Assembly: GCA_017881585.1 (NCBI GenBank)
Contig: JADGQS010000013.1
Span: 1-38,767, forward strand
Origin: Gemmatimonadaceae bacterium
Lineage (GTDB): Bacteria > Gemmatimonadota > Gemmatimonadetes > Gemmatimonadales > Gemmatimonadaceae
Length of the DNA stretch: 38,767 bases
Direction: 5' to 3'
Shown here: positions 2-29,812 of the stretch, in pieces
How positions within the stretch are numbered: the stretch's first letter is position 1
Layout: every line of letters starts with the position of its first letter
Notes under the pieces: model-generated
Seen by the model: only the letters and a program-made list of their open reading frames with translations
What the model was told of the DNA's origin: nothing
Database searches by the model: none
Translations under genes and position numbers: made by a program

Positions 2-694
2 TCGGACAGCGCGTGGGCGAAGGCGGCGGAAACGGCGGCGCGCGCGACGCAGAGGTATCCGCGGCGCGCGGACTATTGGGTGCAGCGCGGGCAGATGGAG
101 TTGAGGGCGGGGCAGGTGAAGCAGGCGGTCGTCTCGCTCAGGCGCGCGCTCGAGATCGATCCCAAGATTCCCGGCGCGCGGATGCTGATCGTGTCGTCGC
201 TGGTCGACGCGAGTGAGTACGACAGCGCGATGGTCGCGATGCACGAGGCCTTGAAGGCCGGCGAAGACGCCGACAGGATCGGGCAGTTCGCGCTTGCGAT
301 CGGGAGCCGGTTGTTCAAGGTTGCGAACGAAGCTCAGCCCAAGACGATCCCGCCGTGGCAAAAGGTGCTGCCGTACGTAGCATACGCGGACACCGTGGCG
401 AAGGATCGCACCACGAAGAACACTGCCAAGTTCGAAATGGGAGTGAGTCATTACTACCTCGCCACGCTGACGTATCCGGACGTGGTCACCCAGAAGAGCT
501 GCGAAGGAGCCAAGCAGGTGCAGGACTACCTGATCGCGGCGTCGGGTGAGCTGCAATTCGGTGGCGCCACGAACCCTGCGGCCGTGAACCAATTGATGCC
601 TGCCATCCAGCAAATGCAAACGGCCGTGGAGCAGGCAGTGAAAGTGTTCTGCGCACCACCGAAGAAGCCGGAAGCGAAAGGCCAGAAGCCGTAA
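2..694 (+). CDS. TPR-repeat protein, 5' truncated
   Basis: The frame is open from the left edge, so the N-terminus lies outside the window; 230 residues are visible. The segment beginning YWVQRGQMELRAGQ and continuing through VSLRRALEIDPK has the spacing of small and large residues of tetratricopeptide repeats, followed by a second helix pair near SEYDSAMVAMHEALKAG. TPRs are protein-interaction scaffolds, and the partner cannot be told. The last residues (KKPEAKGQKP) are encoded by the start of a 7-bp-period repeat that continues past the stop codon, so this Lys/Pro-rich tail is probably repeat-derived rather than conserved. A strong terminator follows, which separates this gene from the dcw cluster. 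No signal peptide can be judged because the start is missing. Confidence 0.75.
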   Translation, partial: SDSAWAKAAETAARATQRYPRRADYWVQRGQMELRAGQVKQAVVSLRRALEIDPKIPGARMLIVSSLVDASEYDSAMVAMHEALKAGEDADRIGQFALAIGSRLFKVANEAQPKTIPPWQKVLPYVAYADTVAKDRTTKNTAKFEMGVSHYYLATLTYPDVVTQKSCEGAKQVQDYLIAASGELQFGGATNPAAVNQLMPAIQQMQTAVEQAVKVFCAPPKKPEAKGQKP

Positions 695-726
695 GCCGGA
701 AGCCGGAAGCCGGAGCCCGGAAGAAC
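664..726 (+). repeat. Heptad array, GAAGCCG type, across a stop codon
   Basis: Nine consecutive 7-bp units in a single register. The main unit is GAAGCCG, with variants GAAGCGA, AAGGCCA, TAAGCCG, GAGCCCG and GAAGAAC. The TAA of unit TAAGCCG (692-694) is the stop codon of the upstream TPR gene, so the first four units are coding and the rest are not. Confidence 0.8.
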
Positions 727-728
727 TG

Positions 729-765
729 CAAAGGCCCGCCGCTCAACACGAGCGGCGGGCCTTTG
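729..765 (+). terminator. Strong hairpin terminator
   Basis: A perfect 15-bp inverted repeat (729-743 with 751-765) with a 7-nt loop. The GC core is flanked by A-rich and T-rich ends (CAAAGG...CCTTTG), the form of a bidirectional intrinsic terminator. It lies 34 bp after the TPR stop codon and would isolate rsmH from upstream transcription. Confidence 0.8.
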
Positions 766-777
766 CCTATCAGTCCG

Positions 778-840
778 GTCCGTCGTCGGTCTTCGGTCGT
801 CGGTCTTCCATCTTCCATCTTCCATCTTCCATCTTCCATC
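778..840 (+). repeat. Heptad array upstream of rsmH
   Basis: Nine consecutive 7-bp units in one register. The first four are of the GTCGGTC type (GTCCGTC, GTCGGTC, TTCGGTC, GTCGGTC) and the last five are identical TTCCATC. The array ends 12 nt before the chosen rsmH start and leaves no Shine-Dalgarno-like purine stretch there. Confidence 0.85.
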
Positions 841-852
841 TATCTTTCCCTC

Positions 853-1848
<996 letters not shown>

Positions 1849-1849
1849 C

Positions 1850-2149
1850 GTGCGCGGCCGCTCGCTCGTCGCCCTTGTTCTCGTCGGTTTCGTCCTCGTG
1901 TCCACGGGCGTCATATGGAGGCGGAGCTTCGGCAACGCGCGCGCCCGCGAACAGCAGCGCCTCGAGCAGCAGCGAGGCGCACTGGAGGCGGAGCGCGCGA
2001 AGCTCGAAGGCGACATCCGCGACGCGTCGAGCCGCGCCACGCTCGCGAAAGTGGCCGAGGAACGTCTCAACATGCACATCCCGAGTGACAGCCTCGTGAT
2101 CTACCTGCAGCGCCCCGCGAAGAGACGGGCACCGCGTGATCCGCACTAG
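1850..2149 (+). CDS. ftsL: FtsL-like septum protein
   Basis: A 99-residue bitopic protein: short basic N-terminus, one transmembrane segment (about residues 5-23) and then a long charged coiled coil (AREQQRLEQQRGALEAERAKLEGDIRD) ending in a short tail. Sequence is poorly conserved, as is normal for FtsL, so the call rests on size, topology and position between rsmH and ftsI. FtsL with FtsQ and FtsB forms the complex that activates FtsW-FtsI at the septum. The GTG start lies 1 nt after the rsmH stop codon; the 3' end overlaps ftsI by 14 nt, suggesting translational coupling. Confidence 0.8.
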   Translation: MRGRSLVALVLVGFVLVSTGVIWRRSFGNARAREQQRLEQQRGALEAERAKLEGDIRDASSRATLAKVAEERLNMHIPSDSLVIYLQRPAKRRAPRDPH

Positions 2150-4145
2150 TCGCGTCGGGCTGGTGCACGCGGCGTTCGCGCTGTTCGGGGTGGTCCTCGT
2201 CGGGCGCGCGGCGCAGGTGCAGCTGTTCCAGACATCCATCTGGCGCACGAAAGCTCGCAACCAACAGATGGCCGCGTCGCCGCTTCCCGCGCCGCGCGGC
2301 ATGATCCTCGACGAGAGCGGCGCGATGCTCGTGGAGAGCCGCCAGCTCGTGCGGCTCAACGTCGCGCCGCGTGAGGTGGCGGGCGACAGCAAGAAAAATC
2401 CGTACGCCGCGCAGCGCCGGCTCGCGGCCCTCGCACGCACCCTCGCGCATGCGAGCGTCTCACCAGAGTGGGTGGCGCGCGCGACCGACACGATCCGCGT
2501 CTGGGTGACGATCCCCGGCCGATACCTGATGAGCGATGTCTCAACGGTCGTGGCGATGCGCGGCGTCCACTCGGAGCCTGTGCTCGAGCGCGTGCCGCCC
2601 GCGAACGACGGCCTGCGCCGCCTGGTCGGCCGCGTCGACGATGCCGGCGAACCGGTCGACGGGCTCGAGAAGGCGCTCGACCCGGTGCTGCGCGGCGAGT
2701 CGGGCCACACCGCCCTCCTCCGCGACGCCAAGGGTACGCGCTTCGACTCGCCCACGCTCAGTGCCGACAATGCAAAGCCGGGTCGCACGGTCGTGCTGAC
2801 CGTGAACCAGACGCTGCAGGATATCGCCGAAAAAGCACTCGGCGACGCCGTGCACCAGACGGGCGCGACGGGTGGGGATATAGTCATGCTCGACCCCAAT
2901 AGCGGAGAAGTGCGCGCGATGGCCAGCCGCCGCGCCGATCCGCTCTCGACGTCCGCGACCGCGCTCACCGAGCCGTACGAGCCGGGCTCCACGCTCAAGC
3001 CCTTCGTCGCCGCGCGTTTACTGGACTTGCACCGCGCCCGCGTGGACGAGGTGATGAACACCTACAACGGCATGTTCGAACTCAACGGCCGCAAGATCGT
3101 GGACGATCATCCCTCGCCGAGTTTCTCGCTGGCCGACGTGATCCGTTTTTCGAGCAACATCGGGATCGTGCAGTTCGCGATGCGTTTTTCGCCGCGCGAG
3201 CAGTACGAACTGCTGCGCGACGTGGGGTTCGGGTCGCCGTCCGGGCTGCCGTATCCCGCCGAGGAGAGCGGCCGCCTCCCCACGCCGCAGCGCTGGGACA
3301 AGCTGACGCCCGCCTCGCTCGCGATGGGCTACGCGCTGAACGTGACGCCGCTGCAGCTCGCGAATGCGTACGCCGCGATCGCGAACGGCGGCGAGCTGAT
3401 GCAGCCGGCGATCGTGAAGGAGATTCGCGGGACGGACGGCACCGTGCTCTATCGTCACCAGCGCACCGTCGTGCGCCGCGTGATGACGGAGGAGACGGCG
3501 CGCACGGTGCGCGGCCTGCTGCGCGGCGTGGTCGAAAGCGGCACCGGTGAATCCGCGAGTCTCGCGACGTTCGACGTCGCCGGAAAGACCGGTACCGCCA
3601 AGCGCACCGAGCATGGCAAATACGTGGCGGGGAAGTACACCGCGAGTTTCGTGGCCCTCTTTCCCGCGGACAATCCGCAGCTCGTGATCCTCATCAAGCT
3701 CGACAACCCGTCGTCGTCGATCTACGGCGGCAAGGCGGCGGCGCCGGTGCTGAAGACTGTGCTGCAGGCGGCGATCGCCGCGCGTGATGCGTCGCTCGAC
3801 CGCAGGAATCTCGCCGCGGTTCCGAAGCGCGTAAATGCGACGATGGCGCTGCCCGAAAGCGTCGTGAGCGCTGATTCGATCGTGCGCGTGACCGAATCCG
3901 GCAGCGTGCCCTACGTGTATCGCCTCGATTCGCCCAAGAAGCCGTCGACGGCTGCGATCGCGACGCGCGCGGTCCCCGACGTGCGCGGATTCCCGGTGCG
4001 GCGCGCGGTGTACGCGCTGCATCGCGCAGGGTTCCGTGTGTCGCTCGCGACCGCCGATGCGTCCGGCTCTGCGAGCACGACGGCGCCGCCGGCGGGAACG
4101 CTCGCGCCGTCCGGCACCACCGTGCGCCTCCTGCGCGCGCCGTGA
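2136..4145 (+). CDS. ftsI: Septal peptidoglycan transpeptidase FtsI (PBP class B) with one PASTA domain
   Basis: D,D-transpeptidase that crosslinks septal peptidoglycan, working with the FtsW glycosyltransferase encoded downstream. One N-terminal transmembrane helix (about 8-27) is followed by the dimerisation domain (RGMILDESGAMLVES) and the transpeptidase domain with S285-TLK (nucleophile), S339-SN and K484-TG. The C-terminus (from VPDVRG at 613) is a single PASTA domain of about 57 residues, a penicillin/muropeptide-binding fold found on some FtsI homologues but absent from E. coli FtsI. Between them lies a Ser/Asp-rich linker. The GTG start overlaps ftsL by 14 nt and the stop overlaps murE by 4 nt (GTGA), so the operon is translationally coupled. 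Confidence 0.95.
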   Translation: MIRTSRVGLVHAAFALFGVVLVGRAAQVQLFQTSIWRTKARNQQMAASPLPAPRGMILDESGAMLVESRQLVRLNVAPREVAGDSKKNPYAAQRRLAALARTLAHASVSPEWVARATDTIRVWVTIPGRYLMSDVSTVVAMRGVHSEPVLERVPPANDGLRRLVGRVDDAGEPVDGLEKALDPVLRGESGHTALLRDAKGTRFDSPTLSADNAKPGRTVVLTVNQTLQDIAEKALGDAVHQTGATGGDIVMLDPNSGEVRAMASRRADPLSTSATALTEPYEPGSTLKPFVAARLLDLHRARVDEVMNTYNGMFELNGRKIVDDHPSPSFSLADVIRFSSNIGIVQFAMRFSPREQYELLRDVGFGSPSGLPYPAEESGRLPTPQRWDKLTPASLAMGYALNVTPLQLANAYAAIANGGELMQPAIVKEIRGTDGTVLYRHQRTVVRRVMTEETARTVRGLLRGVVESGTGESASLATFDVAGKTGTAKRTEHGKYVAGKYTASFVALFPADNPQLVILIKLDNPSSSIYGGKAAAPVLKTVLQAAIAARDASLDRRNLAAVPKRVNATMALPESVVSADSIVRVTESGSVPYVYRLDSPKKPSTAAIATRAVPDVRGFPVRRAVYALHRAGFRVSLATADASGSASTTAPPAGTLAPSGTTVRLLRAP

Positions 4146-5635
4146 AGCCCGTTCGCCTCTCGGACATCGCGGACGCGCTCGCTCGAGCGGGACTCCTCGT
4201 GGCCACGACCGGCGCGCTCCCGGAGACGGTCAGCGCGATCTCCGACGACAGCCGCGCGCTCGGCGCCGGCGCGCTCTTCGTGGCGGTGCGCGGCTCGAGT
4301 CGCGATGGCCATGACTTCCTCGGCGCGGCAGCCGCCTCCGGGGCCGTCGCCGCCGTCCTGGAGGATCCGGCGCGGAGCGCGCTCCCCTCGATCGTCGTGC
4401 GCGACGGGCGGCGGGCCGCGGCCGTCGCGGCCGCCGCGTTCTACGGCGAGCCGGCGAGTGGAATGCGGTTCATCGGCGTCACGGGCACGAACGGAAAGAC
4501 CACGACGGTCGGGATGCTGCGCCACCTGTTCGACGAACCGGACTCGCGCAGCGCGAGCATCGGCACGCTCGGGACGCTGATCGGGAGCAAGGGTGAGCCG
4601 GTGAAGGGAAGCGGCGCATCGCTCACGACACCGGGGCCGATCGAGCTGCAGCGTACGCTGCGGGCGCTCGCGGATGCCGGCGTGCGAACGGTCGCGATCG
4701 AGGTCTCGTCGCATTCGTTGCACCAGCGGCGCGTGGAGGGCGTGCGGTTCGACGCTGCCGTCTTCACGAACCTCACGCGCGACCATCTCGACTATCACGG
4801 CACGATGGACGCGTACTTGGCGGCGAAGGCGTCGCTCGTGCCGCAGCTGAGCAATGATGGCGTTGCGGTAGTGAACGACGACGATCGTGCATGGGACGCG
4901 CTGCCCGTCGCGCCGCGCCGGGTGACGTTCGGCGTGACCAGCACTCGCGCAGACGTGCGCGCGGAACGGCTGGAATTCGATTCCGCCGGCAGTACGTGGC
5001 GCCTCACGACGAAGGATGCGTCGGCCGACGTGCACCTCTCACTCATGGGCGATTTCAACGTCGCCAACGCGCTTGGCGCCGCTGCGGCGGCATTCGCTCT
5101 TGGCATGGCCGTTCCGATCATCGCCCACCGCCTCGTCACGCAGCCCCAGGTGCCCGGCCGGCTCGAGATCGTCGGCGAGCGCCCGATGGTGCTTCGCGAC
5201 TACGCCCACACACCCGACGCGCTCGAACGCGCGCTCACCGCGCTGCGTCCATTTACGCCGGGCGCGCTGATCGTCGTGTTCGGCGCCGGCGGCGATCGCG
5301 ACCGCGGCAAGCGTCCGCTCATGGGGCAGGTGGCCGCTCGCCTGGCCGATCGCGTGATCATCACGAGCGACAACCCGCGCACGGAAGATCCGGAGCGCAT
5401 TCTCGACGACATCGCTGCGGCACTGACGCCCGGACACTTTGAACGCATCGAGGACCGCCGCGCGGCGATCGAATACGCGATCGCTACGGCGGATCCCGCG
5501 CTCGATGTCGTCCTGCTCGCGGGGAAGGGGCACGAGGACTACCAGGTGCGCGGCACCACGAAATATCCGTTTGACGAAAAGGAAATCGTCGGCGCGATCC
5601 TCGCGGCCGCACGCACGAAGGTGAACGCGCGATGA
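4142..5635 (+). CDS. murE: UDP-MurNAc-tripeptide synthetase MurE (meso-DAP type)
   Basis: Cytoplasmic ATP-dependent ligase that adds the third stem-peptide residue to UDP-MurNAc-L-Ala-D-Glu. Three Mur ligase domains are visible: an N-terminal UDP-binding domain (SDDSRALGAGALFVAVRG), the central ATPase with GTNGKT (115-120) and the EVSSHSLHQRRV segment, and the C-terminal domain. The motif DNPR (410-413) is the one that recognises meso-diaminopimelate, so the organism should have DAP-type peptidoglycan. Length 497 is typical. The GTG start overlaps the ftsI stop by 4 nt; murF follows after 4 nt. Confidence 0.96.
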   Translation: MKPVRLSDIADALARAGLLVATTGALPETVSAISDDSRALGAGALFVAVRGSSRDGHDFLGAAAASGAVAAVLEDPARSALPSIVVRDGRRAAAVAAAAFYGEPASGMRFIGVTGTNGKTTTVGMLRHLFDEPDSRSASIGTLGTLIGSKGEPVKGSGASLTTPGPIELQRTLRALADAGVRTVAIEVSSHSLHQRRVEGVRFDAAVFTNLTRDHLDYHGTMDAYLAAKASLVPQLSNDGVAVVNDDDRAWDALPVAPRRVTFGVTSTRADVRAERLEFDSAGSTWRLTTKDASADVHLSLMGDFNVANALGAAAAAFALGMAVPIIAHRLVTQPQVPGRLEIVGERPMVLRDYAHTPDALERALTALRPFTPGALIVVFGAGGDRDRGKRPLMGQVAARLADRVIITSDNPRTEDPERILDDIAAALTPGHFERIEDRRAAIEYAIATADPALDVVLLAGKGHEDYQVRGTTKYPFDEKEIVGAILAAARTKVNAR

Positions 5636-5639
5636 ACGC

Positions 5640-7019
5640 ATGAGCACGTTCTGGACGCTCGCGCGTGTCGCGCGTGCACTCGGCGGCGGTCCGAGCGACG
5701 ACCGCCCGATCCGCGCGGTGTGCACGGATACGCGCGCGATCGAGCGCGGCGACCTGTTCGTCGCGCTCAAGGGCGAGCATCACGATGCGCACCTGTTTCT
5801 CGCCGAGGCCGTGGCGAAGGGCGCGGCGGCCGTCATCGTGCACGATGGGGAACGGGCGAAGGGGCTCGGCGTCCCGGTGTACGTCGTGCCGGACACGCTG
5901 CACGCGCTCGGCGACCTTGGCCGCGCGCGGCGGCTTGCCTGGGGCGGGCCGCTGGTCGCCGTCGGGGGCTCGAACGGCAAGACGAGCACGAAGGAACTGA
6001 TCCGCGCCGCACTCGGTGCACGCCTCGACGTGCACGCGACGAAAGGGAACCTCAACAACCAGATCGGCGTGCCGCTCACGCTGCTCGCGATCCCCGACGG
6101 CGCAGACGTGGTGGTCGCCGAGCTCGGCACGAACGTTCCCGGCGAGATTGCCCTGCTGCGGCGGATCGTCGAGCCGTCCATCGCCGTGGTGACCACGGTG
6201 CAGGAAGAACATCTCGAGGGATTCGGCGATCTCGCGGGCGTAATGCGTGAGGAGGCCTCGCTGCTCGACGGCGTGGCGGTCGCGGTCGTTCCCTCGGACG
6301 AGCCCGCGCTCGTGTCGGAGTCGGTGCGCCGCGCGCGGCGCACGGTGACGGCCGGCGTCGGCAGCGGCGAGGTGATGGCAACGGCCATCACACTGGCCGC
6401 GGACGGCACCGGGACGGTCGTGGTCGATGGCGTGCATGTCCGCGTGCCGCTGCGCGGCCGGCACAACCTCAACAACGCGATGCTGGCGCTGGCGGTGGCG
6501 CGGGAATGCGGGGTGCGGATAGAGGACGCGGGTGCGGCGATCGCCGCAATGAATGTCTCGGCCGTGCCGTCCATGCGCTCCGCCGTCGAGCCGCTCGGCG
6601 AGGCGATGCTCATCAACGACGCGTACAACTCGAATCCGGGCTCGGCGCGCGCCGCGCTCGCGCTCCTCAAGCAAGTCGGCGCCGGTCGCCAGCGCGTCGC
6701 CGTGCTGGGGACGATGCGCGAGCTCGGCGCACACGCCGCGCGGGCGCACGCGGAGGTCGCCCGCGAGGCGCTGAGGTCGGGAGCCACGATCGTGGCCGGT
6801 ATCGGAGAATTCGCGGCGGCGCTGCAACAGGTCGCGCCGAACGACGATCGCGTGGTGACCGCGAACGACATCGACGATCTCTGGCCGAAGTTGCGGTCCC
6901 GCCTCGCCGCGGATGCCGTGATCCTGCTCAAGGCGTCACGCGGCGTGCGTCTCGAGCGTCTTCTGCCACACCTCACCGCGTGGGCGGCCGAAGACGTGTC
7001 TCCCTATCGAACGAGCTGA
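5640..7019 (+). CDS. murF: UDP-MurNAc-pentapeptide synthetase MurF
   Basis: Adds D-Ala-D-Ala to UDP-MurNAc-tripeptide. The N-terminal substrate domain carries CTDTRAIERGDLFVALKGE; the P-loop is GGSNGKTST (109-117, with Lys114), and the central domain has KGNLNNQIGVPLTLL and ELGTNVPGEI, all characteristic of MurF and not of MurD or MurE. The C-terminal domain has INDAYNSNPGSARAAL and VLGTMRELG. At 459 residues it is of normal length. The ATG at 5640 lies 4 nt after the murE stop. No Ddl gene, which would supply D-Ala-D-Ala, lies in this window. Confidence 0.95.
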   Translation: MSTFWTLARVARALGGGPSDDRPIRAVCTDTRAIERGDLFVALKGEHHDAHLFLAEAVAKGAAAVIVHDGERAKGLGVPVYVVPDTLHALGDLGRARRLAWGGPLVAVGGSNGKTSTKELIRAALGARLDVHATKGNLNNQIGVPLTLLAIPDGADVVVAELGTNVPGEIALLRRIVEPSIAVVTTVQEEHLEGFGDLAGVMREEASLLDGVAVAVVPSDEPALVSESVRRARRTVTAGVGSGEVMATAITLAADGTGTVVVDGVHVRVPLRGRHNLNNAMLALAVARECGVRIEDAGAAIAAMNVSAVPSMRSAVEPLGEAMLINDAYNSNPGSARAALALLKQVGAGRQRVAVLGTMRELGAHAARAHAEVAREALRSGATIVAGIGEFAAALQQVAPNDDRVVTANDIDDLWPKLRSRLAADAVILLKASRGVRLERLLPHLTAWAAEDVSPYRTS

Positions 7020-7028
7020 TCCGAGCAG

Positions 7029-12074: not shown

Positions 12075-12085
12075 AGCTTTCAGTC

Positions 12086-15772: not shown

Positions 15773-15785
15773 TCCCGTCACGAAA

Positions 15786-15820
15786 CTTCCGGCTTCCGGC
15801 TTCTCACTTCCGGCTTCCCA
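15786..15820 (+). repeat. Heptad array touching the ftsZ start codon
   Basis: Five 7-bp units in one register: CTTCCGG three times, with CTTCTCA and CTTCCCA as variants. The last base of the last unit is the A of the ftsZ ATG. The leader therefore has no purine-rich ribosome binding site. The unit is the reverse complement of the GAAGCCG-type unit at 664-726, shifted in phase. Confidence 0.8.
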
Positions 15821-21686: not shown

Positions 21687-21705
21687 GGAGTGAGGTGACC
21701 GCAAA

Positions 21706-23805
21706 GTGACAGCCCAACGCGCGGCCCGCAGCGCGGGGCGATCGCTCGACACCGCGGTCACGTACCTCACCGGCGTCGGGCCCGCGCGCGCCGACGCGCT
21801 CCGGCGGCTCGGTATTTTCACGGCGCGCGACCTCTTCCTGCACATTCCGCATCGGTACGAGGACGCGAGCACGGTGTCCGCCATCGCGAAACTGCGTATC
21901 GGTGACGACGCCACGGTCATCGGCACCGTGATCTCGAAGGGCGTGATTCCCACGCGAAAGGGTCTTCGCGTGTTTCAGGCCGTGGTGCAGGACTCGAGCG
22001 GGCTCATCGAGGCATCGTGGCCGGGCCAGCCCTTCCTCGACCGCGCCATCAAGAAGGGCGACGTGCTGTTGCTCACCGGCCCGGTGCGCTTCTTCCACGG
22101 TCGCGTGCTGGCGCCGCGCGAGTTCGTGAACCTGGGGCCGGAGGACTCGGCAAACGGCACGAGCGGGGGTCGCGTGCTCTCCGTGTATCCGGCGACCGAG
22201 GGATTCTCGTTCAAGCAGCTGCGCGCACTGATCGACAAGCATCTCGATGAGTACCTGCCGCTGTTCAAGGAATACATCCCCACCGACATTCTGCATTCCG
22301 CATCCGTTCCGACTCTCCCGGACGCGCTGCGCGCCGTGCACCGTCCGCGCACCCTCGCCGAGGCGCATGCGGGCCGCGCGCGCCTCGCGTTCGAGGAACT
22401 GCTGTGCGTGCACATCCTGCAGCTGCGCGCCAAGACGCTCGCCCGCGAGACCCGCGCGGGAATCCGGTTCGTGAACAAGCGCATGTTGACCTCGAAACTG
22501 AAGTCGATCCTGCCGTTCGAGCTCACCGGCGCGCAGGTGCGCGCCACGCGCGAGATCGTGAAGGACATGACGAGCCCGCAACGCATGCACCGCCTGCTGC
22601 AGGGCGACGTGGGCAGCGGCAAGACGATCGTCGCCCTGTTCGCCGCGCTGCTCGCGGTCGAGAACGACTACCAGGCCGCGGTGATGGCGCCGACCGAACT
22701 GCTCGCCGAGCAGCACGCACGAACGTTCTCCTCACTCCTCGCCCCCCTCGGACTTTCTCCGCTGCTCGTCACCGGATCGCTCACGGCCCGCGAGCGAAAG
22801 GCCGCGGCGTCGCGGCTCGCGAGCAGCGAGCCGCTGATCGTCGTCGGCACGCACGCGCTCACGCAGGAGGGAACGCAGTTCGCGAGACTCGGCCTCGCTG
22901 TGGTGGACGAACAGCATCGGTTCGGCGTGGAGCAGCGCCTCGCGCTTGGCAAGAAGGGCGCGCGTCCCGACGTGCTGCTGATGAGCGCCACGCCGATTCC
23001 CCGGTCGCTCGCGCTCACGCTGTACGGCGACCTCGACGTGAGTGTGCTCGACGAGCGTCCGCCGGGCCGCCAGCCCGTGACGACGGCGAGGCGTCCGGAG
23101 AAGGCGCGTGCGAAGGTGTTCGACTTCATCGACGCGCAGGTCGCGAAAGGCCGTCAGGCGTACATCGTGCTGCCGCTGATCGATGAGAGCGACAAGATCG
23201 CACTCCGTGCCGCGACGAAGGAATACGAGGATCTGCGCACCGGTCGCTTTGCGCATCGTAGAGTGGCGCTCCTGCACGGCCGCCTCGACGCGGCCGCGAA
23301 GGACGATACCATGCGCCGATTCCGCGACGGCGAGATCGACATCCTCATCTCGACGACGGTGATCGAGGTCGGCATCGACGTCGCGAACGCGACCGTGATG
23401 CTCATCGAGCACCCCGAACGCTTCGGCCTCTCGCAGCTCCATCAGCTGCGCGGCCGCGTGGGCCGCGGCGCCGAGGAGAGCTTCTGCATCCTGCTCGGCG
23501 ACGTGAGCCCCGAGGTGGCCGAGCGTCTCGAGATCTTCGTGAGCACCGACGACGGCTTCCGGATCGCGGAGGCCGACCTGCAACTGCGGGGAATGGGCGA
23601 TCTGTTCGGCGAGCGGCAGAGCGGCGAGCCGACCTTTCGCGTGGCCGACCCGATTCGCGACCGCGAGCTGAGCGAGGTGGCGCGCGACGGCGCGGCGCGC
23701 TTGCTCGGGAGCGATCCCGGCCTGGCCAGCAAGGCCAACAAGCCGCTGCACGACGTGCTGCGCAAGCGTTACGGACGGGCGCTGGAGCTGTTTCGGGCCG
23801 GCTGA
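21706..23805 (+). CDS. recG: ATP-dependent DNA helicase RecG
   Basis: Superfamily 2 helicase that remodels stalled forks and branched DNA. The N-terminal wedge/OB domain covers about residues 15-170 (YLTGVGPARADALRRLGI, FLHIPHRYED), followed by motif I GDVGSGKT (Lys306), the motif II sequence DEQHRFG (401-407), SATPIPRSLALTLYGDLD, and C-terminal motifs with LHGRLD, TTVIEVGIDV and QLRGRVGRG. The TRG region QLRGMGDLFGERQSG is present. Length 699 is typical. The GTG start has a GAGG stretch upstream. No obvious coupling to ftsY beyond a 19-nt gap. Confidence 0.96.
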   Translation: MTAQRAARSAGRSLDTAVTYLTGVGPARADALRRLGIFTARDLFLHIPHRYEDASTVSAIAKLRIGDDATVIGTVISKGVIPTRKGLRVFQAVVQDSSGLIEASWPGQPFLDRAIKKGDVLLLTGPVRFFHGRVLAPREFVNLGPEDSANGTSGGRVLSVYPATEGFSFKQLRALIDKHLDEYLPLFKEYIPTDILHSASVPTLPDALRAVHRPRTLAEAHAGRARLAFEELLCVHILQLRAKTLARETRAGIRFVNKRMLTSKLKSILPFELTGAQVRATREIVKDMTSPQRMHRLLQGDVGSGKTIVALFAALLAVENDYQAAVMAPTELLAEQHARTFSSLLAPLGLSPLLVTGSLTARERKAAASRLASSEPLIVVGTHALTQEGTQFARLGLAVVDEQHRFGVEQRLALGKKGARPDVLLMSATPIPRSLALTLYGDLDVSVLDERPPGRQPVTTARRPEKARAKVFDFIDAQVAKGRQAYIVLPLIDESDKIALRAATKEYEDLRTGRFAHRRVALLHGRLDAAAKDDTMRRFRDGEIDILISTTVIEVGIDVANATVMLIEHPERFGLSQLHQLRGRVGRGAEESFCILLGDVSPEVAERLEIFVSTDDGFRIAEADLQLRGMGDLFGERQSGEPTFRVADPIRDRELSEVARDGAARLLGSDPGLASKANKPLHDVLRKRYGRALELFRAG

Positions 23806-23869
23806 GGGCGACCTTCGCGTCGCTCGTCGCTGTCTGTCCTTTGCACCCCACCAGCGAATCGCGCTATGC

Positions 23870-26062
23870 TTGAGGTCTCCTCTTTCCCATGGTATCGCGA
23901 TCTCCGAGCCCGACTCTCCATCCCGAACCCCGGATGGCCTGGAACGATTCGCCCCCGTCGGCGCCGCGCTCGTGGCGTTGGTCGTCCTGCTTGCCATTGG
24001 ATACGGCGTCGATCTCTGGACCCGGGCGCGGCTCGTCGAGCGCCAGCGCCAGGACATCCAGCTTCGGCTCGTCCCGTATGCGAACTCGATCTCGGTTGGA
24101 CTCAAGCGGCGGCTCGAGCGGCTGAACGGACTGAAGGGATTCGTCGAGAGCGCACATAGCATCGACGAGGTGAACCGCGAGTTCCCGGTCCTCGCGGCCG
24201 GACTGCTGCAGGGCGCGTCGGGAGTTCGTGCGCTCGTCCTCCTCAAGAAGGGCCGGGTGCGCTGGGTCTATCCGCTGGCGGGGAACGAAAAGGCGCTGGA
24301 TCTCGACCTCATCCATGACCCGCGCGCCGAGATCAGGGAGGACATGCGCCGGATGGAGCAAACCGATTCGGTCGTCATCACGGGCCCACTGACGCTCGCG
24401 CCGGGCGGGGTCGGGCTGATCGCACGTGAGCGGCTGCACACCGGCAATCCGTCGCTGCCCGATGCGGTGAGCGTGGTCGTCGACGTGGATTCGCTGCTCG
24501 CCGTCGCCGGGATGCTCAACGGCGTTCCGAGCCTGGATGTCGCCCTGCTCGACCGGAGCGGCGCACGAATGGGGTCATTGAGGGCGCCGGTGCCGCCCAA
24601 TCCCGTGCAGGTCAGCGTCGTGACGCCGGACGGACACTTCACGCTGGTGGCGTCGCCGATCGGCGGATGGAACGCGGCCGTCGCCGCCACGCTGCTGGCG
24701 GTTCGCGCCGCGGGCCTCACGATCGTTTTCCTCTTCGCGGGACTGATCTATCTCATCATCGAGCGGCAGTCCCGCCTCACCGCTGCCGTGGAAGAGCGGA
24801 CGCGGGAACTGCAGCTCGCCAACGCGGAGCTTGGCCGCGAAGTGCAGGTCCGGCTCGAGACCGAAGCGGCGCTGCGCCGGCAGGAGGAACAGCTTCTCCA
24901 CGCGCAGAAGATGGAGGCTGTGGGAACGCTCGCGGGCGGCATCGCGCACGACTTCAACAACGTCCTCACCGCGATCATCGGGTTCGGCGGCCTCGCGCTC
25001 GACCGCACGAACGATTTTGCGAAGGCGCGTGGCGAGAGCGAGGATATCGCCGCCATCCGGCTGGACGTGGAGGAGATCCTTCGCGCCTCCCAGCACGCCG
25101 CGGTCGTGACCAACCAGCTGCTCGCCTTCAGCCGAAAGCAGGTCGCCCGCCCCGAGGCGCTCGACGTGGGCAGCGTGGTGCGCGAAATCGAGGGACTGTT
25201 GCAGCGGCTGATCGGCGAGCGCGTGCGCCTCGAGACGAACATGGCCGCCGGCCTGCCGAACGTGTTCGTGGATCGCGGCCAGCTCACGCAGGTGCTCGTC
25301 AACCTCGCCGTCAACGCACGCGACGCGATGCCGGAGGGCGGCCTCATCTCGATCGGCGCGATCTGCAAGCACGTGCGCGCCGGCGGCTGGCGAGCGGCTC
25401 GCGGCGTGCCCGTGGGTGATTACGTCGAGATCAGGTTCGAGGACAACGGCCACGGCATGCCGCCGGACGTGCTCGCTCGCGTGTTCGAGCCATTCTTTAC
25501 GACGAAAGGGCTGGGGAAGGGCACCGGACTCGGACTTTCCACCGTGTACGGGATTGTCGGCCGGATCGGCGGACGCGTGCTCGTGGACAGCAAGGAGGGC
25601 AAGGGAACGGTGTTTCGCGTCCTGCTCCCGCAGCACCATGGCGAAGCCGCCGTCGTCGCTCCGCTCCCGGATCGGCCCGCGTCCGACACGCGGTCGGCGA
25701 CGATCCTGCTGGCGGAGGACGAGCCCGCCGTTCGAAAGCTCGCCACGCGCGTTCTCTCTCGTTTGGGATTTACCGTGCTCGTCGCCTCCTCGGGCGAGGA
25801 AGCCATCGCGCTGAGCGCCGCGCACGCGGGTCGAGTGGACCTCCTCCTCACCGACCTCGTCATGGGAGGCGTGAACGGACGGGTGACGGCCGAGCGCCTC
25901 CGGTCCCAGCGTCCCGGGCTCCGCGTGCTGTTCATGTCCGGGTACTCCGAAGAAACCGATAAGCTCGGCGACTTCGACGGGGGCCGCTCGACTCTCCTAT
26001 CGAAGCCCTTCACGCCCGACGTGCTGGCGCGCCGGGTTCGTGAGGAGCTGGACCGCGCCTGA
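23870..26062 (+). CDS. Hybrid sensor histidine kinase with receiver domain
   Basis: 730 residues. A transmembrane helix (about 31-46) is followed by a periplasmic sensor region of some 230 residues resembling CHASE-type domains, and a second transmembrane helix (about 277-300). Next come a coiled coil (RTRELQLANAELGREV), a HisKA domain with phosphoacceptor H360 in GGIAHDFNN, the ATPase domain (NLAVNARDAMPEGG, DNGHGMP, GLGLSTVYGIV), and a C-terminal receiver with phosphoacceptor D662 in LLTDLVMGG and the lysine in SKPF. The start is uncertain: TTG 23870 is the only start that keeps the first helix whole; downstream GTG 23972 would cut it. The signal sensed and the output partner are unknown. 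Confidence 0.9.
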   Translation: MRSPLSHGIAISEPDSPSRTPDGLERFAPVGAALVALVVLLAIGYGVDLWTRARLVERQRQDIQLRLVPYANSISVGLKRRLERLNGLKGFVESAHSIDEVNREFPVLAAGLLQGASGVRALVLLKKGRVRWVYPLAGNEKALDLDLIHDPRAEIREDMRRMEQTDSVVITGPLTLAPGGVGLIARERLHTGNPSLPDAVSVVVDVDSLLAVAGMLNGVPSLDVALLDRSGARMGSLRAPVPPNPVQVSVVTPDGHFTLVASPIGGWNAAVAATLLAVRAAGLTIVFLFAGLIYLIIERQSRLTAAVEERTRELQLANAELGREVQVRLETEAALRRQEEQLLHAQKMEAVGTLAGGIAHDFNNVLTAIIGFGGLALDRTNDFAKARGESEDIAAIRLDVEEILRASQHAAVVTNQLLAFSRKQVARPEALDVGSVVREIEGLLQRLIGERVRLETNMAAGLPNVFVDRGQLTQVLVNLAVNARDAMPEGGLISIGAICKHVRAGGWRAARGVPVGDYVEIRFEDNGHGMPPDVLARVFEPFFTTKGLGKGTGLGLSTVYGIVGRIGGRVLVDSKEGKGTVFRVLLPQHHGEAAVVAPLPDRPASDTRSATILLAEDEPAVRKLATRVLSRLGFTVLVASSGEEAIALSAAHAGRVDLLLTDLVMGGVNGRVTAERLRSQRPGLRVLFMSGYSEETDKLGDFDGGRSTLLSKPFTPDVLARRVREELDRA

Positions 26063-26081
26063 TTAGATTCTCCCCGTTCAC

Positions 26082-26116
26082 CGATCGCTGATCCCGTCCT
26101 CCGTCACCCGTCCGGA
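26082..26116 (+). repeat. Weak heptad periodicity before the sorbosone dehydrogenase-like gene
   Basis: Five degenerate 7-bp units in one register (CGATCGC, TGATCCC, GTCCTCC, GTCACCC, GTCCGGA) ending 3 nt before the ATG at 26120. The match between units is partial, so it may be chance. Confidence 0.35.
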
Positions 26117-26119
26117 CCG

Positions 26120-27421
26120 ATGCGCTCTTCCACTTCCCGTCGTGCCGTCTCGCTCGGTGTTGCCGTCGTTCTCCTCGTCGCCGCATCCGGTGCGGCGCGA
26201 ATGCGCTCGAGCGCCGTGCCCTGCAATCCCGACAACGGCAGCCTGACGCTGCCGCCCGGGTTCTGCGCGACGGTGTTCGCCGACAAGGTGGGCGCGCCCC
26301 GGCACATGGTGGTCGCGCCGAACGGCGATGTTCTCGTGATCGGCAACTCGTTCGCGACGAACGCCGAGGCCGGCGGCTCGCGCACGGGCGGCTCGCTCAT
26401 GCTGCTGCGCGACGCGAACGGCGACGGAAAGGCCGAACTCGTGAAGCGGCTCAAGCCGGGCAACGGCTCGGGCATCGCGCTCGCGAACGGCTATCTGTAT
26501 ACGTCGACGGGCCCGTCGATCGTGCGCTACAAGTACGCCACGGGTGACACTCTGCTCGGCGCCGCGGACACGATCGTCTCCGGCTTCGCGACGGGCGGGC
26601 ACACCGCGTACAACTTCGTGGTGATCGGGAGCACGATCTACATGAACGTCGGCTCGCGCACGAACGCGTGCCAGCCGGCCGAAGTCGACCGCAAGGGAAA
26701 GGCGCCGGGCGTCGATCCATGCGTGGAGCTCGAGTCACGCGGCGGCATCTGGACGTTCGACGCGAACAAGCCCGGGCAGCATCCGGCGGATGGAACGAGG
26801 TTTGCAACCGGCATGCGCAACTCCGTTTCGCTCACCGTGAACTCGCGCGACCACACGCTTTGGGCGACCATGCACGGCCGCGACCAGCTCAGCGACTGGG
26901 GCTTCAGCGAAGACTACAACGCCGAGAATCCCGGCGAGCAGGTCAACCACATTCTCAAGGGCGACGATTTCGGCTGGCCCTACTGCTACTTCTCGACTGA
27001 GGAGAAGAAGCTGGTGAACGGGCCCGAGTACGGCGGCGACGGCAAGCAGAACTCGCGCTGCACGGCGAAGAAACAGCCCGAGTACGTCTTTCCGGGCCAC
27101 TGGGCTCCGAACGACATGATGTTCTACTCCGGCTCGCAGTTCCCGCCGCGGTACAGGGACGGCGCGTTCATCGCGTTCCACGGTTCGTGGAATCGCGCAC
27201 CGAAGCCGCAGCAGGGATTCCGCGTGGTGTTCCTGCCGGTGAAGGGCGGGAAGACCGGGCCGTTCGAGGATTTCGCAATCGACTTCTCGAACGCCGGCGG
27301 CCCGGGAAAGGACGGCCGGCTGCATCGCCCGACCGGACTGGCACAGGGCGCCGACGGATCGCTGTACATCGCGGATGACGTCGGGGGAACGATCTACAAG
27401 ATCAGCTACAAGGGAAAATGA
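26120..27421 (+). CDS. Secreted sorbosone dehydrogenase-like beta-propeller protein
   Basis: 433 residues with an N-terminal signal sequence (basic start, hydrophobic core about 10-26). The mature part has the repeated beta-propeller pattern of PQQ-dependent sugar dehydrogenases of the sorbosone/glucose dehydrogenase type: LPPGFCATVFADKVGAPRHMVVAPNGDVLV, FATGMRNSVSLTVN, and HGSWNRAPKPQQGFRVVF with GLAQGADGSLYIADD near the C-terminus. Four cysteines in the exported region could form disulfides. Expected to oxidise an aldose or similar substrate in the periplasm if PQQ binds; the substrate is not readable from sequence. The 3' end is followed 5 nt later by a palindromic heptad array. Confidence 0.82.
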   Translation: MRSSTSRRAVSLGVAVVLLVAASGAARMRSSAVPCNPDNGSLTLPPGFCATVFADKVGAPRHMVVAPNGDVLVIGNSFATNAEAGGSRTGGSLMLLRDANGDGKAELVKRLKPGNGSGIALANGYLYTSTGPSIVRYKYATGDTLLGAADTIVSGFATGGHTAYNFVVIGSTIYMNVGSRTNACQPAEVDRKGKAPGVDPCVELESRGGIWTFDANKPGQHPADGTRFATGMRNSVSLTVNSRDHTLWATMHGRDQLSDWGFSEDYNAENPGEQVNHILKGDDFGWPYCYFSTEEKKLVNGPEYGGDGKQNSRCTAKKQPEYVFPGHWAPNDMMFYSGSQFPPRYRDGAFIAFHGSWNRAPKPQQGFRVVFLPVKGGKTGPFEDFAIDFSNAGGPGKDGRLHRPTGLAQGADGSLYIADDVGGTIYKISYKGK

Positions 27422-27426
27422 CCAGC

Positions 27427-27496
27427 GATGGAAGATGGAAGATCGAAGATGGACGATCCTCCATCTTCCATCTTCCATCTTCCATCTTCCATCGCA
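27427..27496. repeat. Palindromic heptad array before asnS
   Basis: Ten consecutive 7-bp units in one register. The left half is GATGGAA type (GATGGAA twice, GATCGAA, GATGGAC), the centre GATCCTC, and the right half CATCTTC four times then CATCGCA. The right half is the reverse complement of the left, giving a stem of up to 27 bp with one mismatch (27427-27453 with 27460-27486) and a 6-nt loop. It starts 5 nt after one stop codon and ends 13 nt before the asnS start. Confidence 0.85.
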
Positions 27497-27509
27497 TAGC
27501 ACTCGATCA

Positions 27510-28805
27510 ATGCACTCCGTCCGAATCAACGAACTCTCGAACCACGCCGGGACCTCCGTCACCGTCCGCGGCTGGGTGACCCACCTCCGTTCGTCCGGCA
27601 AGGTCGCGTTCATCGTGATGCGCGACGGCACCGGCATCCTGCAGACGGTGCTCGTGAAGAGCGCCGTCGCACCGGAGACGTGGGACCATTTCGCGCGGCT
27701 GACGCAGGAGACTTCACTCAGTGTCACGGGTGAGGTCCGCGCCGACGCCCGCGCGCCGGGCGGATACGAGCTCGGCATCGCCGACCTGTCGATCATCGGC
27801 GCGAGCCCGCTCGACTATCCGATCCAGCCGAAGGAGCACGGCATCGATTTTCTCCTCGACAACCGCACGTTCTGGCTGCGTTCGCCGCGGCAGGTCGCGA
27901 TCGCGCGCATTCGCAGCGAGCTCGAGCAGGCGACGCACGACTTCTACTATTCGCGCGGATTCCTCCGTGTCGACACGCCGATCCTCACGGCCGCGATCGG
28001 CGAGCGGAGCGGTCTGTTCTCGACGGAGTACTTCGACGAGGGCAACGCGTACCTCGCGCAGACCGGCCAGCTGTACGGCGAGGCCGCGGCGGCCGCGTTC
28101 GGCAAGATCTACACGTTCGGCCCGACGTTTCGCGCCGAGAAGTCGAAGACCCGCCGGCACCTCACCGAGTTCTGGATGATCGAGCCGGAGGTCGCGTTCA
28201 ACGACACGCACGACAACATGCGGTTGCAGGAGGACTACGTCTCGTTCCTCGTGCAGCGCGTCCTCGAGCGCCGCGGCGCGGAACTGAAGGAAGTTGAGCG
28301 CGACATCTCGAAGCTCGAGACCGTGAAGCCGCCCTTTCCGCGCATCGACTACACCGACGCGGTCGCCACGCTGCAGAAGAAGGGAAGCTCCGTGCAATGG
28401 GGCGAGGACTTGGGCGCCGAGGATGAAGCGCTCCTGGTCGAGGATTACGACCGGCCGATCTTCGTGATGAACTATCCGAAGGAGGCGAAGGCCTTCTACA
28501 TGAAAGAGAATCCCGACGATCCACGCACCGTGCTCTGCGACGACTGCCTCGCGCCCGAGGGATACGGCGAGATCATCGGCGGCTCACAGCGCGAGGACGA
28601 CTACGACAAGATCCTGCAGCGCCTGCGCGAGGAGAAACTGCCGGAAGACGCGTACGAGTGGTACCTCGCGCTCAGGAAGTACGGAACGTTCCCGCACTCG
28701 GGATTCGGGCTCGGGCTCGAGCGCACGGTCGCGTGGATTGTCGGCGCGCAGCACATCCGCGAGTGCATCGCGTTTCCGAGGATGATGCATAGGCTCAGGC
28801 CTTAA
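27510..28805 (+). CDS. asnS: Asparaginyl-tRNA synthetase
   Basis: Class IIb synthetase charging tRNA-Asn. An OB-fold anticodon-binding domain covers residues 17-100 (VTVRGWVTHLRSSGKVAFIVMRDG). Catalytic motif 1 lies near FLRVDTPILT, motif 2 is FRAEKSKTRRHLTEFWMIEPE (207-227), and motif 3 is GLGLERTVAWIVG near the C-terminus. FLLDNRTFWLRS and AYLAQTGQLYGEA are typical of AsnRS rather than AspRS. Length 431 is normal. The ATG at 27510 is the family start; an upstream extension would only translate the heptad repeat. It ends facing mazG, with a palindromic element between the two stops. Confidence 0.95.
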   Translation: MHSVRINELSNHAGTSVTVRGWVTHLRSSGKVAFIVMRDGTGILQTVLVKSAVAPETWDHFARLTQETSLSVTGEVRADARAPGGYELGIADLSIIGASPLDYPIQPKEHGIDFLLDNRTFWLRSPRQVAIARIRSELEQATHDFYYSRGFLRVDTPILTAAIGERSGLFSTEYFDEGNAYLAQTGQLYGEAAAAAFGKIYTFGPTFRAEKSKTRRHLTEFWMIEPEVAFNDTHDNMRLQEDYVSFLVQRVLERRGAELKEVERDISKLETVKPPFPRIDYTDAVATLQKKGSSVQWGEDLGAEDEALLVEDYDRPIFVMNYPKEAKAFYMKENPDDPRTVLCDDCLAPEGYGEIIGGSQREDDYDKILQRLREEKLPEDAYEWYLALRKYGTFPHSGFGLGLERTVAWIVGAQHIRECIAFPRMMHRLRP

Positions 28806-28810
28806 GAACC

Positions 28811-28964
28811 AACTGCCTTGCCACGGATTTACACGGATTTCAACGGCGATATCCGCGGATCAATCTTGGGGGAACTGCACTCGTTTCAGAGAGAGCAGTT
28901 CCCCCAATAGTCTTATCCGTGAATATCCGGCATTTGATCCGTGCGTTTCCGTGGTAAGGCAGTT
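28811..28964. repeat. Palindromic CACGGAT-type element, copy 2
   Basis: Ends are inverted: AACTGCCTT (28811-28819) with AAGGCAGTT (28956-28964), extended inwards by CCACGGA/TCCGTGG and CACGGAT/ATCCGTG. The centre is a perfect 13-bp hairpin (28866-28878 with 28895-28907, TTGGGGGAACTGC). It shares its inner core with the copy at 15493-15642. The left end lies 5 nt after the asnS stop, and the right part is coding for the last 16 or so residues of MazG. Confidence 0.8.
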
Positions 28965-29812
28965 GCCTTAACCTCGTCCCAAAACGAATCGAGAACGGCG
29001 AGCCCAGCGGTCTTCACGTTGATTCCGCGCTCGGTCGCGAGCTTCTCCACTCCTTCAAACCGCTCCTGAAACTTCGCATTCGCCTTGTCGAGCGCGAGCG
29101 AAGGATGCACGCCCGCCTTGCGGCACAGGTTCACGACCGAGAACAGGAGATCGCCGAGTTCGCCTTCGAGCCGCGCATGCCGCGGATCGCCCGACGGCAC
29201 GCCATGCGTGTCGAACTCGGCTCCGTTCGCGCCGATCTCGGCCTCGACCTCCGCCAGCTCTTCGCGCACTTTGTCGATCGGCCCCTTCACATCTGGCCAG
29301 TCGAATCCCACCCCCGCGGCGCGCTCCTGCAGCCGGTGCGCGCGGTGCAGGGAAGGAAGCCCCTGCGGAAGGCCGTCCGCGAGCGAACGGCGCGTCTTCG
29401 ACTTCATCTGCTCCCACGGCTCGCGATCGGACGCATCGCCGTAGAGCCATGGATGCCGCCGGGTCATCTTGCTCACGAGCGAGCCCGCGACGGAGCCGAC
29501 GTCGAACGTGCCGCGCTCCTCGGCGATGATGGAGTGAAAGAGCACCTGCAGCAGGACGTCACCGAGCTCGCTGCACATGGCCGCGTCGTCGCCGGAGCGG
29601 ATCGCGTCGTCGAGCTCGTGCATCTCTTCGTCGAGATACGGCCGCAGCGAGTCGTGCGTCTGGGCGCGGTCCCACGCATCGCGCGCGCGGAGATCGCGCA
29701 TGATCGCCAGCGCGTCGTCAAGAGACGCGGACTCCGCGTCGGCTTTCGGCTTCCGCGCTTCCGGCTTCCGCGCTTCCGGCTTCCGCGCTTTCGGCTTCTT
29801 TTTGTCTTGCAT
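28913..29812 (-). CDS. mazG: Nucleoside triphosphate pyrophosphohydrolase MazG
   Basis: 299 residues with two MazG domains. The first starts at LDDALAIMRDLRARDAWDRAQTHDSL, with the acidic metal-binding pattern in YLDEEMHELDDAI and SELGDVLLQVLFHS; the second carries REELAEVEAEIG and GELGDLLFSVVNL. It hydrolyses NTPs/dNTPs to monophosphates and can clear aberrant nucleotides. Both ends are repeat-derived. Residues 4-24 (RKPEA repeats) come from a 7+8-bp array, and the last 16 or so residues plus the TAA stop come from the palindromic element. The ATG at 29812 has GAGGAG 2 nt upstream, closer than usual; no in-frame start lies between the array and the conserved domain except Met38. Divergent from alr by 36 bp. 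Confidence 0.9.
   Translation of the reverse strand: MQDKKKPKARKPEARKPEARKPKADAESASLDDALAIMRDLRARDAWDRAQTHDSLRPYLDEEMHELDDAIRSGDDAAMCSELGDVLLQVLFHSIIAEERGTFDVGSVAGSLVSKMTRRHPWLYGDASDREPWEQMKSKTRRSLADGLPQGLPSLHRAHRLQERAAGVGFDWPDVKGPIDKVREELAEVEAEIGANGAEFDTHGVPSGDPRHARLEGELGDLLFSVVNLCRKAGVHPSLALDKANAKFQERFEGVEKLATERGINVKTAGLAVLDSFWDEVKATALPRKRTDQMPDIHG
29740..29798 (-). repeat. 7+8-bp repeat array coding the MazG N-terminus
   Basis: On the minus strand, GAAGCCG heptamers alternate with 8-mers of the GAAGCGCG type, giving a 15-bp (five-codon) period that encodes RKPEA twice plus degenerate flanking copies. The heptamer is the same as at 664-726. Confidence 0.8.

What the first reader, a model, noticed from the sequence alone, without database searches (positions are those of the whole stretch)
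664..29798. A family of exact 7-bp-period arrays with different heptamers at gene boundaries
At least five sites carry runs of 5-10 units in a strict 7-bp register: 664-726, 778-840, 15786-15820, 27427-27496 and, as a 7+8 form, 29740-29798. A coding array at 1258-1299 is weaker. The heptamers differ (GAAGCCG, TTCCATC, GTCGGTC, CTTCCGG, GACGACC) but on their purine strand nearly all begin GA. This recalls the heptanucleotide STRR repeats known from filamentous cyanobacteria, yet with variable unit sequence and a constant period. A constant period with a changing unit points to a shared amplification mechanism rather than a spreading sequence. Seven bases is not a multiple of the codon, so arrays inside genes are constrained.
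Basis: partly seen in the sequence, partly recalled or inferred. Interest (0 to 1): 0.78.

Follow-up and report, generated by a model that had tools for sequence, protein, structure and literature searches.

The report
Seven-base repeat hairpins between genes
This bacterial genome carries many short hairpins at gene boundaries whose arms are built from seven-base repeats, and in a close relative some of the same hairpins sit at the same places but are written in a different seven-base word on both arms, so the period and shape seem to outlast the letters.

Summary
In 622 kb of this Gemmatimonadota genome, from contigs without the commonest array type, intergenic DNA has a sharp 7/14/21-bp periodicity. 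A tolerant detector finds 26 period-7 arrays against 0.3 expected; other periods give 0-5.

Corrections: GAAGCCG and CTTCCGG are one unit read from opposite strands; 27427-27496 is an inverted pair (33-nt arms); 29740-29798 is a 15-bp (7+8) coding repeat in MazG.

Many arrays form hairpins at gene junctions: matched heptamer arms, purine arm first. Nearly the same grammar is published for GGGAATC repeats of Xanthomonas, so the kind is known.

What I did not find in print: between two sister species (flanks 80-98% identical), 15 of 17 located sites keep an array but 6 of those 15 use another unit family. In four elements, including the window's asnS site, both arms changed together (GATGGAA to GCCGGAA). 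Other species of the genus carry other heptamers, and several sites are empty in relatives.

Best reading: slippage in 7-nt steps, copying between arms and homogenisation between sites, perhaps kept as junction hairpins. This mechanism is inferred. New variant of a known kind.

The parts
664..721 (+). imperfect GAAGCCG (GCCGGAA) array overlapping the stop codon of the upstream gene; purine strand is the sense strand
   Evidence: stop codon TAA 692-694
728..766 (+). GC-rich hairpin (17-nt perfect arms, 5-nt loop) between the two arrays; looks like an intrinsic terminator
   Evidence: terminator reading is by eye
778..841 (-). array upstream of rsmH: GACCGAM units, then GATGGAA units, in one 7-bp register (read on the minus strand)
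853..1848 (+). rsmH (mraW), 16S rRNA methyltransferase gene
   Evidence: Pfam PF01795, 5.5e-85
1257..1303 (+). weak period-7 array in a variable loop of RsmH
15786..15818 (-). short imperfect GCCGGAA array (CTTCCGG on +) ending next to the start codon of ftsZ (15820)
   Evidence: FtsZ by Pfam
27425..27495 (.). hairpin element: GATGGAA arm, 5-nt loop, TTCCATC arm, between a GSDH-family gene (ends 27421) and a class II tRNA synthetase gene read here as asnS (starts 27510)
   Evidence: fold -51.6 kcal/mol, z -11.5
29740..29798 (-). coding repeat, 15-bp period (7+8), encoding KPKAR/KPEAR at the N-terminus of MazG
28913..29812 (-). mazG, host of the coding repeat
   Evidence: Pfam PF03819, 1.8e-31

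Best explanation
The window samples a genome-wide set of arrays and hairpin elements at gene junctions, built from tandem heptamers. Shown: the period is 7; paired arms usually carry the same unit family; arm order is fixed; GGAA-type arrays near a stop codon have the purine strand as sense strand, those near a start codon the pyrimidine strand; several sites are empty in relatives; and between two sister species the unit family can change on both arms while site and shape stay. Inferred mechanism: (1) arrays grow and shrink by slipped-strand synthesis in 7-nt steps; (2) one arm is copied onto the other by fold-back template switching during replication, which keeps the arms complementary; (3) recombination between dispersed arrays homogenises the unit within a lineage, so that each lineage has its own heptamers and newer units displace older ones in layers. 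Inferred role: a junction hairpin that separates neighbouring genes or protects mRNA 3' ends.
For: Period 7/14/21 in intergenic DNA only. Same unit on both arms in 15 of 16 strict GAT/GCC pairs in G000 and 13 of 14 non-CCA pairs in G011; order fixed in all of these and, reversed, in 7 of 7 and 1 of 1 CCA pairs. Looser arms: same unit group in 37 of 58 pairs, shuffle mean 15.3, maximum 27 of 10,000 shuffles. Strand rule: 20 of 22 and 10 of 11 (p 1e-4 and 0.01). Site kept, unit changed: 6 of 15 G000/G011 sites. Both arms changed at four elements, 17-19 of 49-56 compared arm positions. Layers of units at rsmH: GACCGAR in G002 and G014, plus GATGGAA in G000, plus GCCGGAA in G011. Empty sites. MutS present, so loss of mismatch repair is not needed.
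Against: No step of the mechanism was observed; it is read from end states. In the four switched elements the loop changed too, which whole-cassette replacement explains at least as well as arm copying. I found no one-arm intermediate apart from rsmH, where only one of the two flanking arrays switched. Recombination between arrays was not tested. Not all arrays are paired or junctional: 27 of 112 lie in predicted genes and 9 of 95 divergent intergenic regions carry one. No transcript data.
Confidence: 0.5

Rival explanations
1. Cassette turnover: the elements are mobile or recombining palindromic cassettes. A GATGGAA cassette is lost or overwritten by a GCCGGAA cassette at a favoured junction site; the 7-bp period is an old property of the cassette family.
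For: Arms and loop change together in the four switched elements, while the unswitched L032:4283 element has an identical loop in both species. Sites can be empty. CCA-type elements have strongly conserved outer ends, GACCGATTACYCGC.
Against: GAT and GCC arms have weakly conserved outer ends (at most 0.7 bits for GAT; the GCC values up to 1.2 bits fall on the two bases next to the array). No Y1_Tnp domain in 18 of 18 genomes and RVT_1 only in G017. Other transposases were not searched. No loop conserved across the GAT/GCC pairs, although one loop (gtgcgc) recurs in two.
Confidence: 0.22
2. Selection on RNA structure: the elements are transcribed hairpins, and unit changes on one arm are followed by compensating changes on the other because the stem must pair.
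For: Very stable folds (-65 to -119 kcal/mol for elements with 45-nt flanks; z -11.5 for asnS without them). Arms match within elements. Elements lie next to stop codons with fixed strand.
Against: About eight paired double changes per element between species whose flanks are 90-97% identical is too many for independent compensation. Arrays occur between divergent genes (9 of 95, against 52 of 316 elsewhere; Fisher p 0.10). No T run follows the asnS hairpin. Single unpaired arrays exist.
Confidence: 0.15
3. Ordinary simple-sequence slippage without role: heptamers expand because 7 nt suits the polymerase (proposal of Mrazek et al. 2007, seen only in PMC4679880 and PMC4692102), and palindromes are a by-product.
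For: Period 7 with many units; known over-representation of heptamers in many bacteria.
Against: Slippage alone gives neither matched inverted arms nor a fixed arm order, nor joint change of both arms, nor the same unit at many sites.
Confidence: 0.1
4. G-quadruplex repeats, as proposed for GGGAATC repeats of Xanthomonas and Nostoc.
For: Same strand rule and convergent pairs in print (PMC4692102, abstract and section 10).
Against: The main units here (GATGGAA, GCCGGAA, GACCAAT) have no run of three G, yet follow such a grammar.
Confidence: 0.03

Closest known systems
GGGAATC/(GGGANTN)n repeats of Xanthomonas and GGGGA(C/T)T repeats of Nostoc (PMC4692102; abstract, sections 10, 14, 16 and passages read)
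   Same: Heptamer arrays, mostly intergenic, with variable unit number; G-rich strand sense after stop codons and antisense before start codons; many convergent inverted pairs; most sites shared between two related species (83%) with, in the authors' words, extensive length and sequence variation.
   Different: Units there have G runs and form quadruplexes in vitro; the units here have none. The passages I read do not describe a joint change of unit family on both arms.
TAACTGA repeats of marine Beggiatoaceae (PMC4679880; abstract and introduction read)
   Same: Intergenic heptamer direct repeats in many copies near start codons.
   Different: One unit, related heptamers rare, nearly all direct rather than inverted (169 sets of direct repeats, one indirect).
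Heptanucleotide elements of Geobacter metallireducens (PMC2700814; passages read)
   Same: Two heptamer families in one genome (GGGACCG four times at 49 places; MTYCTGA five times).
   Different: Fixed unit number; described as regulatory elements; no comparison of units between species in the passages seen.
Heptanucleotide long simple sequence repeats (Mrazek et al. 2007, not held; known from PMC4679880 and PMC4692102)
   Same: Heptanucleotides the commonest class; a 7-nt polymerase contact proposed as cause.
   Different: Hairpin pairing and unit change at fixed sites are not part of the account I saw.
REP/REPIN elements with RAYT transposase (recalled; listings only)
   Same: Dispersed intergenic palindromes.
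   Different: No Y1_Tnp domain in any of 18 genomes of the genus; GAT/GCC elements lack conserved ends.

Membership tests
Bacterial heptanucleotide simple sequence repeats | period 7 over-represented against other periods in intergenic DNA | tested here: met
Xanthomonas/Nostoc GGGAATC-type repeats | G-rich or purine strand sense after stop, antisense before start | tested here: met
   20 of 22 and 10 of 11 GGAA-type arrays
Xanthomonas/Nostoc GGGAATC-type repeats | convergent inverted pairs | tested here: met
   16 of 16 strict GAT/GCC pairs in G000, 14 of 14 non-CCA pairs in G011; CCA-type pairs have the opposite order
Xanthomonas/Nostoc GGGAATC-type repeats | G tracts of three or more able to form quadruplexes | tested here: not met
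   dominant units GATGGAA, GCCGGAA, GACCAAT have none
Xanthomonas/Nostoc GGGAATC-type repeats | preference for four units | not tested
   -
STRR of filamentous cyanobacteria | the published STRR unit sequences | not tested
   units only recalled; three Calothrix heptanucleotides mentioned in PMC4692102
REP/REPIN | RAYT (Y1_Tnp) gene in the genome | tested here: not met
   0 of 18 genomes, control found in 5 of 14
MITE-like cassette | conserved terminal sequences | tested here: inconclusive
   weak for GAT/GCC arms, strong for CCA arms
MITE-like cassette | target-site duplication at filled against empty sites | tested here: inconclusive
   asnS junction compared by eye: stop and start are separate in filled sites, so a short duplication cannot be told from selection for both codons
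Intrinsic terminator | stable hairpin followed by a T run | tested here: not met
   asnS element: stable hairpin but ATAGCACTCGATCA follows; other elements not scored
Known Rfam family | match above gathering score | tested here: not met
   no match in the window

The most novel reading that the evidence does not exclude
A dedicated, largely sequence-blind process measures 7 nt and rewrites both arms of dispersed junction hairpins, so that a lineage exchanges its heptamer 'word' at many sites while keeping site, period and pairing. In the asnS element the third unit of the left arm has a C at the same position in both species (GATCGAA in G000, GCCCGAA in G011), which would fit rewriting of two positions in every unit rather than replacement of the array; this is one case and may be chance.
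Probability: 0.15. Interest if true: 0.88.

Novelty: new variant of a known kind. Interest (0 to 1): 0.62.

Why it matters
Heptamer repeats recur in unrelated bacteria, and for the best-studied ones a function was not found (PMC4692102, section 16). Here a very similar grammar appears with units that lack the G runs of that model, and some orthologous elements change their unit on both arms. That separates what persists (7-nt period, site, pairing) from what does not (the letters) and makes the origin of the 7-nt period testable by comparing close strains.

Tried and rejected
Rejected or weakened. RAYT-driven REPs: no Y1_Tnp in 18 genomes. Reverse-transcriptase templating: RVT_1 in 1 of 18 genomes, G017, which has no GGAAG match. 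Loss of mismatch repair as a needed cause: MutS_I in 15 of 18, including G000, G002, G011 and G014; missing in G007, G010 and G016, of which G016 does carry a heptamer hairpin at one site. Plain terminators: see membership test. Rfam: no match.

A claim I dropped: I first read a 20-nt palindrome beyond the arrays in the G011 copy of the L121 element; the fold shows only about 7 bp beyond them.

Results against a neat picture. The sample first called unbiased avoids the 30 contigs with triple GGAAG matches; it is conservative, not random. Of 43 non-coding GGAA-type arrays with a neighbouring gene, 33 fall in the two distance classes quoted; the other 10 are 3 at 11-40 nt past a stop (2 sense), 5 farther from a stop (0 sense) and 2 more than 40 nt from a start (0 antisense). 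Arms of one element count separately there. The loose arm finder admits two-unit chance arms and has one GATCGAA pair in the opposite order (L040); the strict counts are quoted instead. G015, G006, G003 and G004 (100 kb each) show no clear 7 peak (z -0.8, 2.4, 0.6, 1.6), though G006 has 13 GTTMACS matches genome-wide. Pooled rsmH neighbourhoods of other Gemmatimonadota have z 5.0 at 7 but 9.1 at 6 and 6.4 at 8, so period 7 is not special there; exact runs there were 13 for period 7 in 7 of 62 loci, 7 for period 6 and 14 for period 9 (12 loci dropped by title). The P values only reject independent point changes at 10% divergence; repeat units do not change independently, and the automatic arm reading lost register in the right arm of the G011 copies of L049 and L119. 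Sites shared by G000 and G011 are over-counted, because 20 of 25 G011 stretches and 31 of 92 G000 stretches were fetched for their arrays. Some arrays in predicted genes may come from the home-made gene caller, the L119:4516 element among them. In one search one protein was given out of frame and repeated correctly.
Full report
Setting. The window is contig C115 of G000, a draft genome of 3,091,729 bases in 240 contigs. Most named relatives recovered with its RsmH protein are Gemmatimonadota MAGs. G011 matches the record 'fen_1231' by two contig lengths; a genus name Fen-1231 would be my inference from that title.

Is period 7 real? I took the first 20 kb or less of 60 contigs of G000 (622,036 bp). 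None of them is among the 30 contigs with a triple GGAAG match, so the sample is poor in the commonest array type. Exact repeats: period 7 gives 30 runs of at least 10 matched positions against 5.0 in shuffles; period 5 gives 2 against 4.7 and period 8 gives 1 against 2.0; periods 6, 9 and 12 are raised too (18 against 2.7, 16 against 3.0, 9 against 0.0), as codon structure would give. With a self-trained gene caller, autocorrelation in intergenic DNA peaks at 7, 14 and 21 (z 12.7, 8.3, 6.6; 14.4, 9.9, 8.3), while coding DNA shows multiples of 3. A mismatch-tolerant detector finds 45, 26 and 21 period-7 arrays at rising thresholds against 0.6, 0.3 and 0.0 in Markov controls; other periods from 4 to 13 give at most 7, 5 and 5, all for period 12. 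Eighteen of 203 intergenic regions of at least 60 bp carry an array.

Units. In 92 stretches of G000 (1,077,410 bases, 31 of the 92 fetched for GGAAG arrays) there are 112 arrays, 27 of them in predicted genes. Main units in one register: GATGGAA, GATCGAA, GCCGGAA, GACCGAA, GACCAAT/C, GACGGCA, GAGTGGG. Units mix inside single arrays without losing register, as at 778-841. Matches for three GGAAG units: 68 in G000, 60 in G011, 28 in G002, 5 in G014 and none in the other 14 genomes of the genus; 9 of 41 genomes searched have any match. Other members use other heptamers: GTTMACS in G005, G006, G008, G016 and G017; GTAGACN in G006, G008, G009 and G017; neither pattern occurs in G000, G002, G011 or G014. 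GACCRAY occurs in G000 (28), G011 (23) and G001 (1). Reversed-pattern controls are zero and at most one per genome.

Architecture. Many arrays come as inverted pairs. With strict unit matching, 16 of 16 GATGGAA/GCCGGAA pairs in G000 and 14 of 14 non-CCA pairs in G011 have the purine arm first, and 15 of 16 and 13 of 14 carry the same unit on both arms; CCA-type pairs are in the other order, 7 of 7 and 1 of 1; the G014 and G002 stretches held gave no pair. With looser arms the unit group matches in 37 of 58 pairs, against a shuffle mean of 15.3 and maximum of 27. GGAA-type arrays follow a strand rule: 20 of 22 within 10 nt of a stop codon are purine-sense and 10 of 11 within 40 nt of a start codon are antisense; the remaining 10 of 43 are listed under Tried and rejected. 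The asnS hairpin folds at -51.6 kcal/mol, z -11.5, none of 200 shuffles as good. CCA-type elements have conserved ends, GAT and GCC arms hardly.

Comparison between species. Of 51 elements in 25 G011 stretches (20 chosen for GGAAG arrays), 17 have both flanks in held G000 DNA (identity 80-98%). Fifteen have an array there and two do not; 6 of the 15 have another unit family. Four elements changed unit on both arms: asnS in the window, L121:2941, L049:14019 and L119:4516. Unit by unit, 17 to 19 of 49 to 56 compared arm positions differ; independent point changes at 10% divergence would give that with P of 5e-7 to 5e-6. Flanks are 90-97% identical for three of them, and the asnS downstream flank is 95%. 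The loops differ too, whereas the unswitched L032:4283 element has an identical loop. At rsmH, G002 and G014 have GACCGAR units only, G000 adds GATGGAA and G011 adds GCCGGAA in the same register or nearly so (one six-base unit in G011), which looks like layers; four more distant relatives (L131-L134) have no array. At asnS, G002, G016 and G015 have overlapping stop and start codons and no element; at the L049 site G002 and G014 are empty; at the L121 site G014 is empty, G009 has a plain GC-rich hairpin, G002 another palindrome, G008 a (GTAGACC)n hairpin and G016 heptamers of the GGTTAAC/CGTTCAC kind (read by eye). So in this genus the same junction can be empty, hold a plain hairpin, or hold heptamer hairpins with unrelated units.

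Coding arrays. Three GGAAGC-type arrays in predicted genes have a 15-bp period made of 7+8: mazG in the window, L038:4452 and L119:1595; three other period-15 runs found have other sequences, one of them intergenic. RsmH has a repeat-rich insert in one variable loop in G000, G002, G011, G014 and, longer, in L200.

Mechanism. Shown are period, pairing, order, strand rule, empty sites and joint unit change. Slippage in 7-nt steps, fold-back copying between arms and homogenisation between dispersed arrays are inferred; cassette replacement and selection for pairing remain open. No RAYT domain was found in the genus, RVT_1 only in G017, and MutS_I is present in the four GGAAG-bearing genomes.

Literature. 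PMC4692102 (abstract, sections 10, 14, 16, passages) reports the strand rule, convergent pairs, shared sites in 83% of cases and extensive length and sequence variation between two Xanthomonas species, shows quadruplex formation in vitro and states that a role in gene regulation was not found. PMC4679880 (abstract and introduction) reports TAACTGA repeats and summarises Mrazek et al. 2007, which is not held. PMC2700814 (passages) reports two heptamer families in Geobacter metallireducens. Passages of PMC4666352 and PMC4060949 had nothing on these elements. In ten searches of open-licence papers (seen as listings) I found no account of such elements in Gemmatimonadota or of a joint unit change on both arms.

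Verdict. The pattern is real and genome-wide. It belongs to a known kind, heptamer repeats at gene junctions; the joint change of unit on both arms at fixed sites is, as far as I could see, a new variant. The mechanism is a proposal.

Noticed in passing
window 28810-28965: Another palindromic element between the asnS-like gene and mazG: 29-nt arms, 83% complementary, around an inner 17-nt hairpin. A similar-looking palindrome stands at the L121 site in G002 (L294).
   Followed up: partly
L060:3014-3086, L055:11258-11344, L073:18444-18524 and others: CCA-type palindromic element with conserved ends (GGTAATCGGTC ... GACCGATTACYCGC), its arms also heptameric; the pattern was found in G000 and G011, once in G001, in no other genome of the genus.
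   Followed up: partly
L219 and L221 (G011 rsmH): rsmH of G011 is split over two contigs with 89% identity to the window in the first part and 99% in the second: recombination or an assembly mix.
   Followed up: no
window 841-848 and L129-L134, L172: A TATCTTTC-like motif stands a few bases upstream of the rsmH start in most of the relatives printed (TATATTTC in L129, absent in L137 and L138), like a -10 box with a very short leader (by eye); the heptamer array ends right against it.
   Followed up: no
L200:10001-11032: In another Gemmatimonadota MAG (titled Gemmatimonas sp. PR.004) the same RsmH loop is longer, with GGCRGAC-like units followed by a GTCCGCC run: an inverted arrangement inside a gene.
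   Followed up: partly
L219, L234, L241, L245, L252 (G011): Two-N scaffold gaps, several of them beside repeats, where G000 has 57-146 extra bases; probably assembly joins rather than deletions.
   Followed up: no
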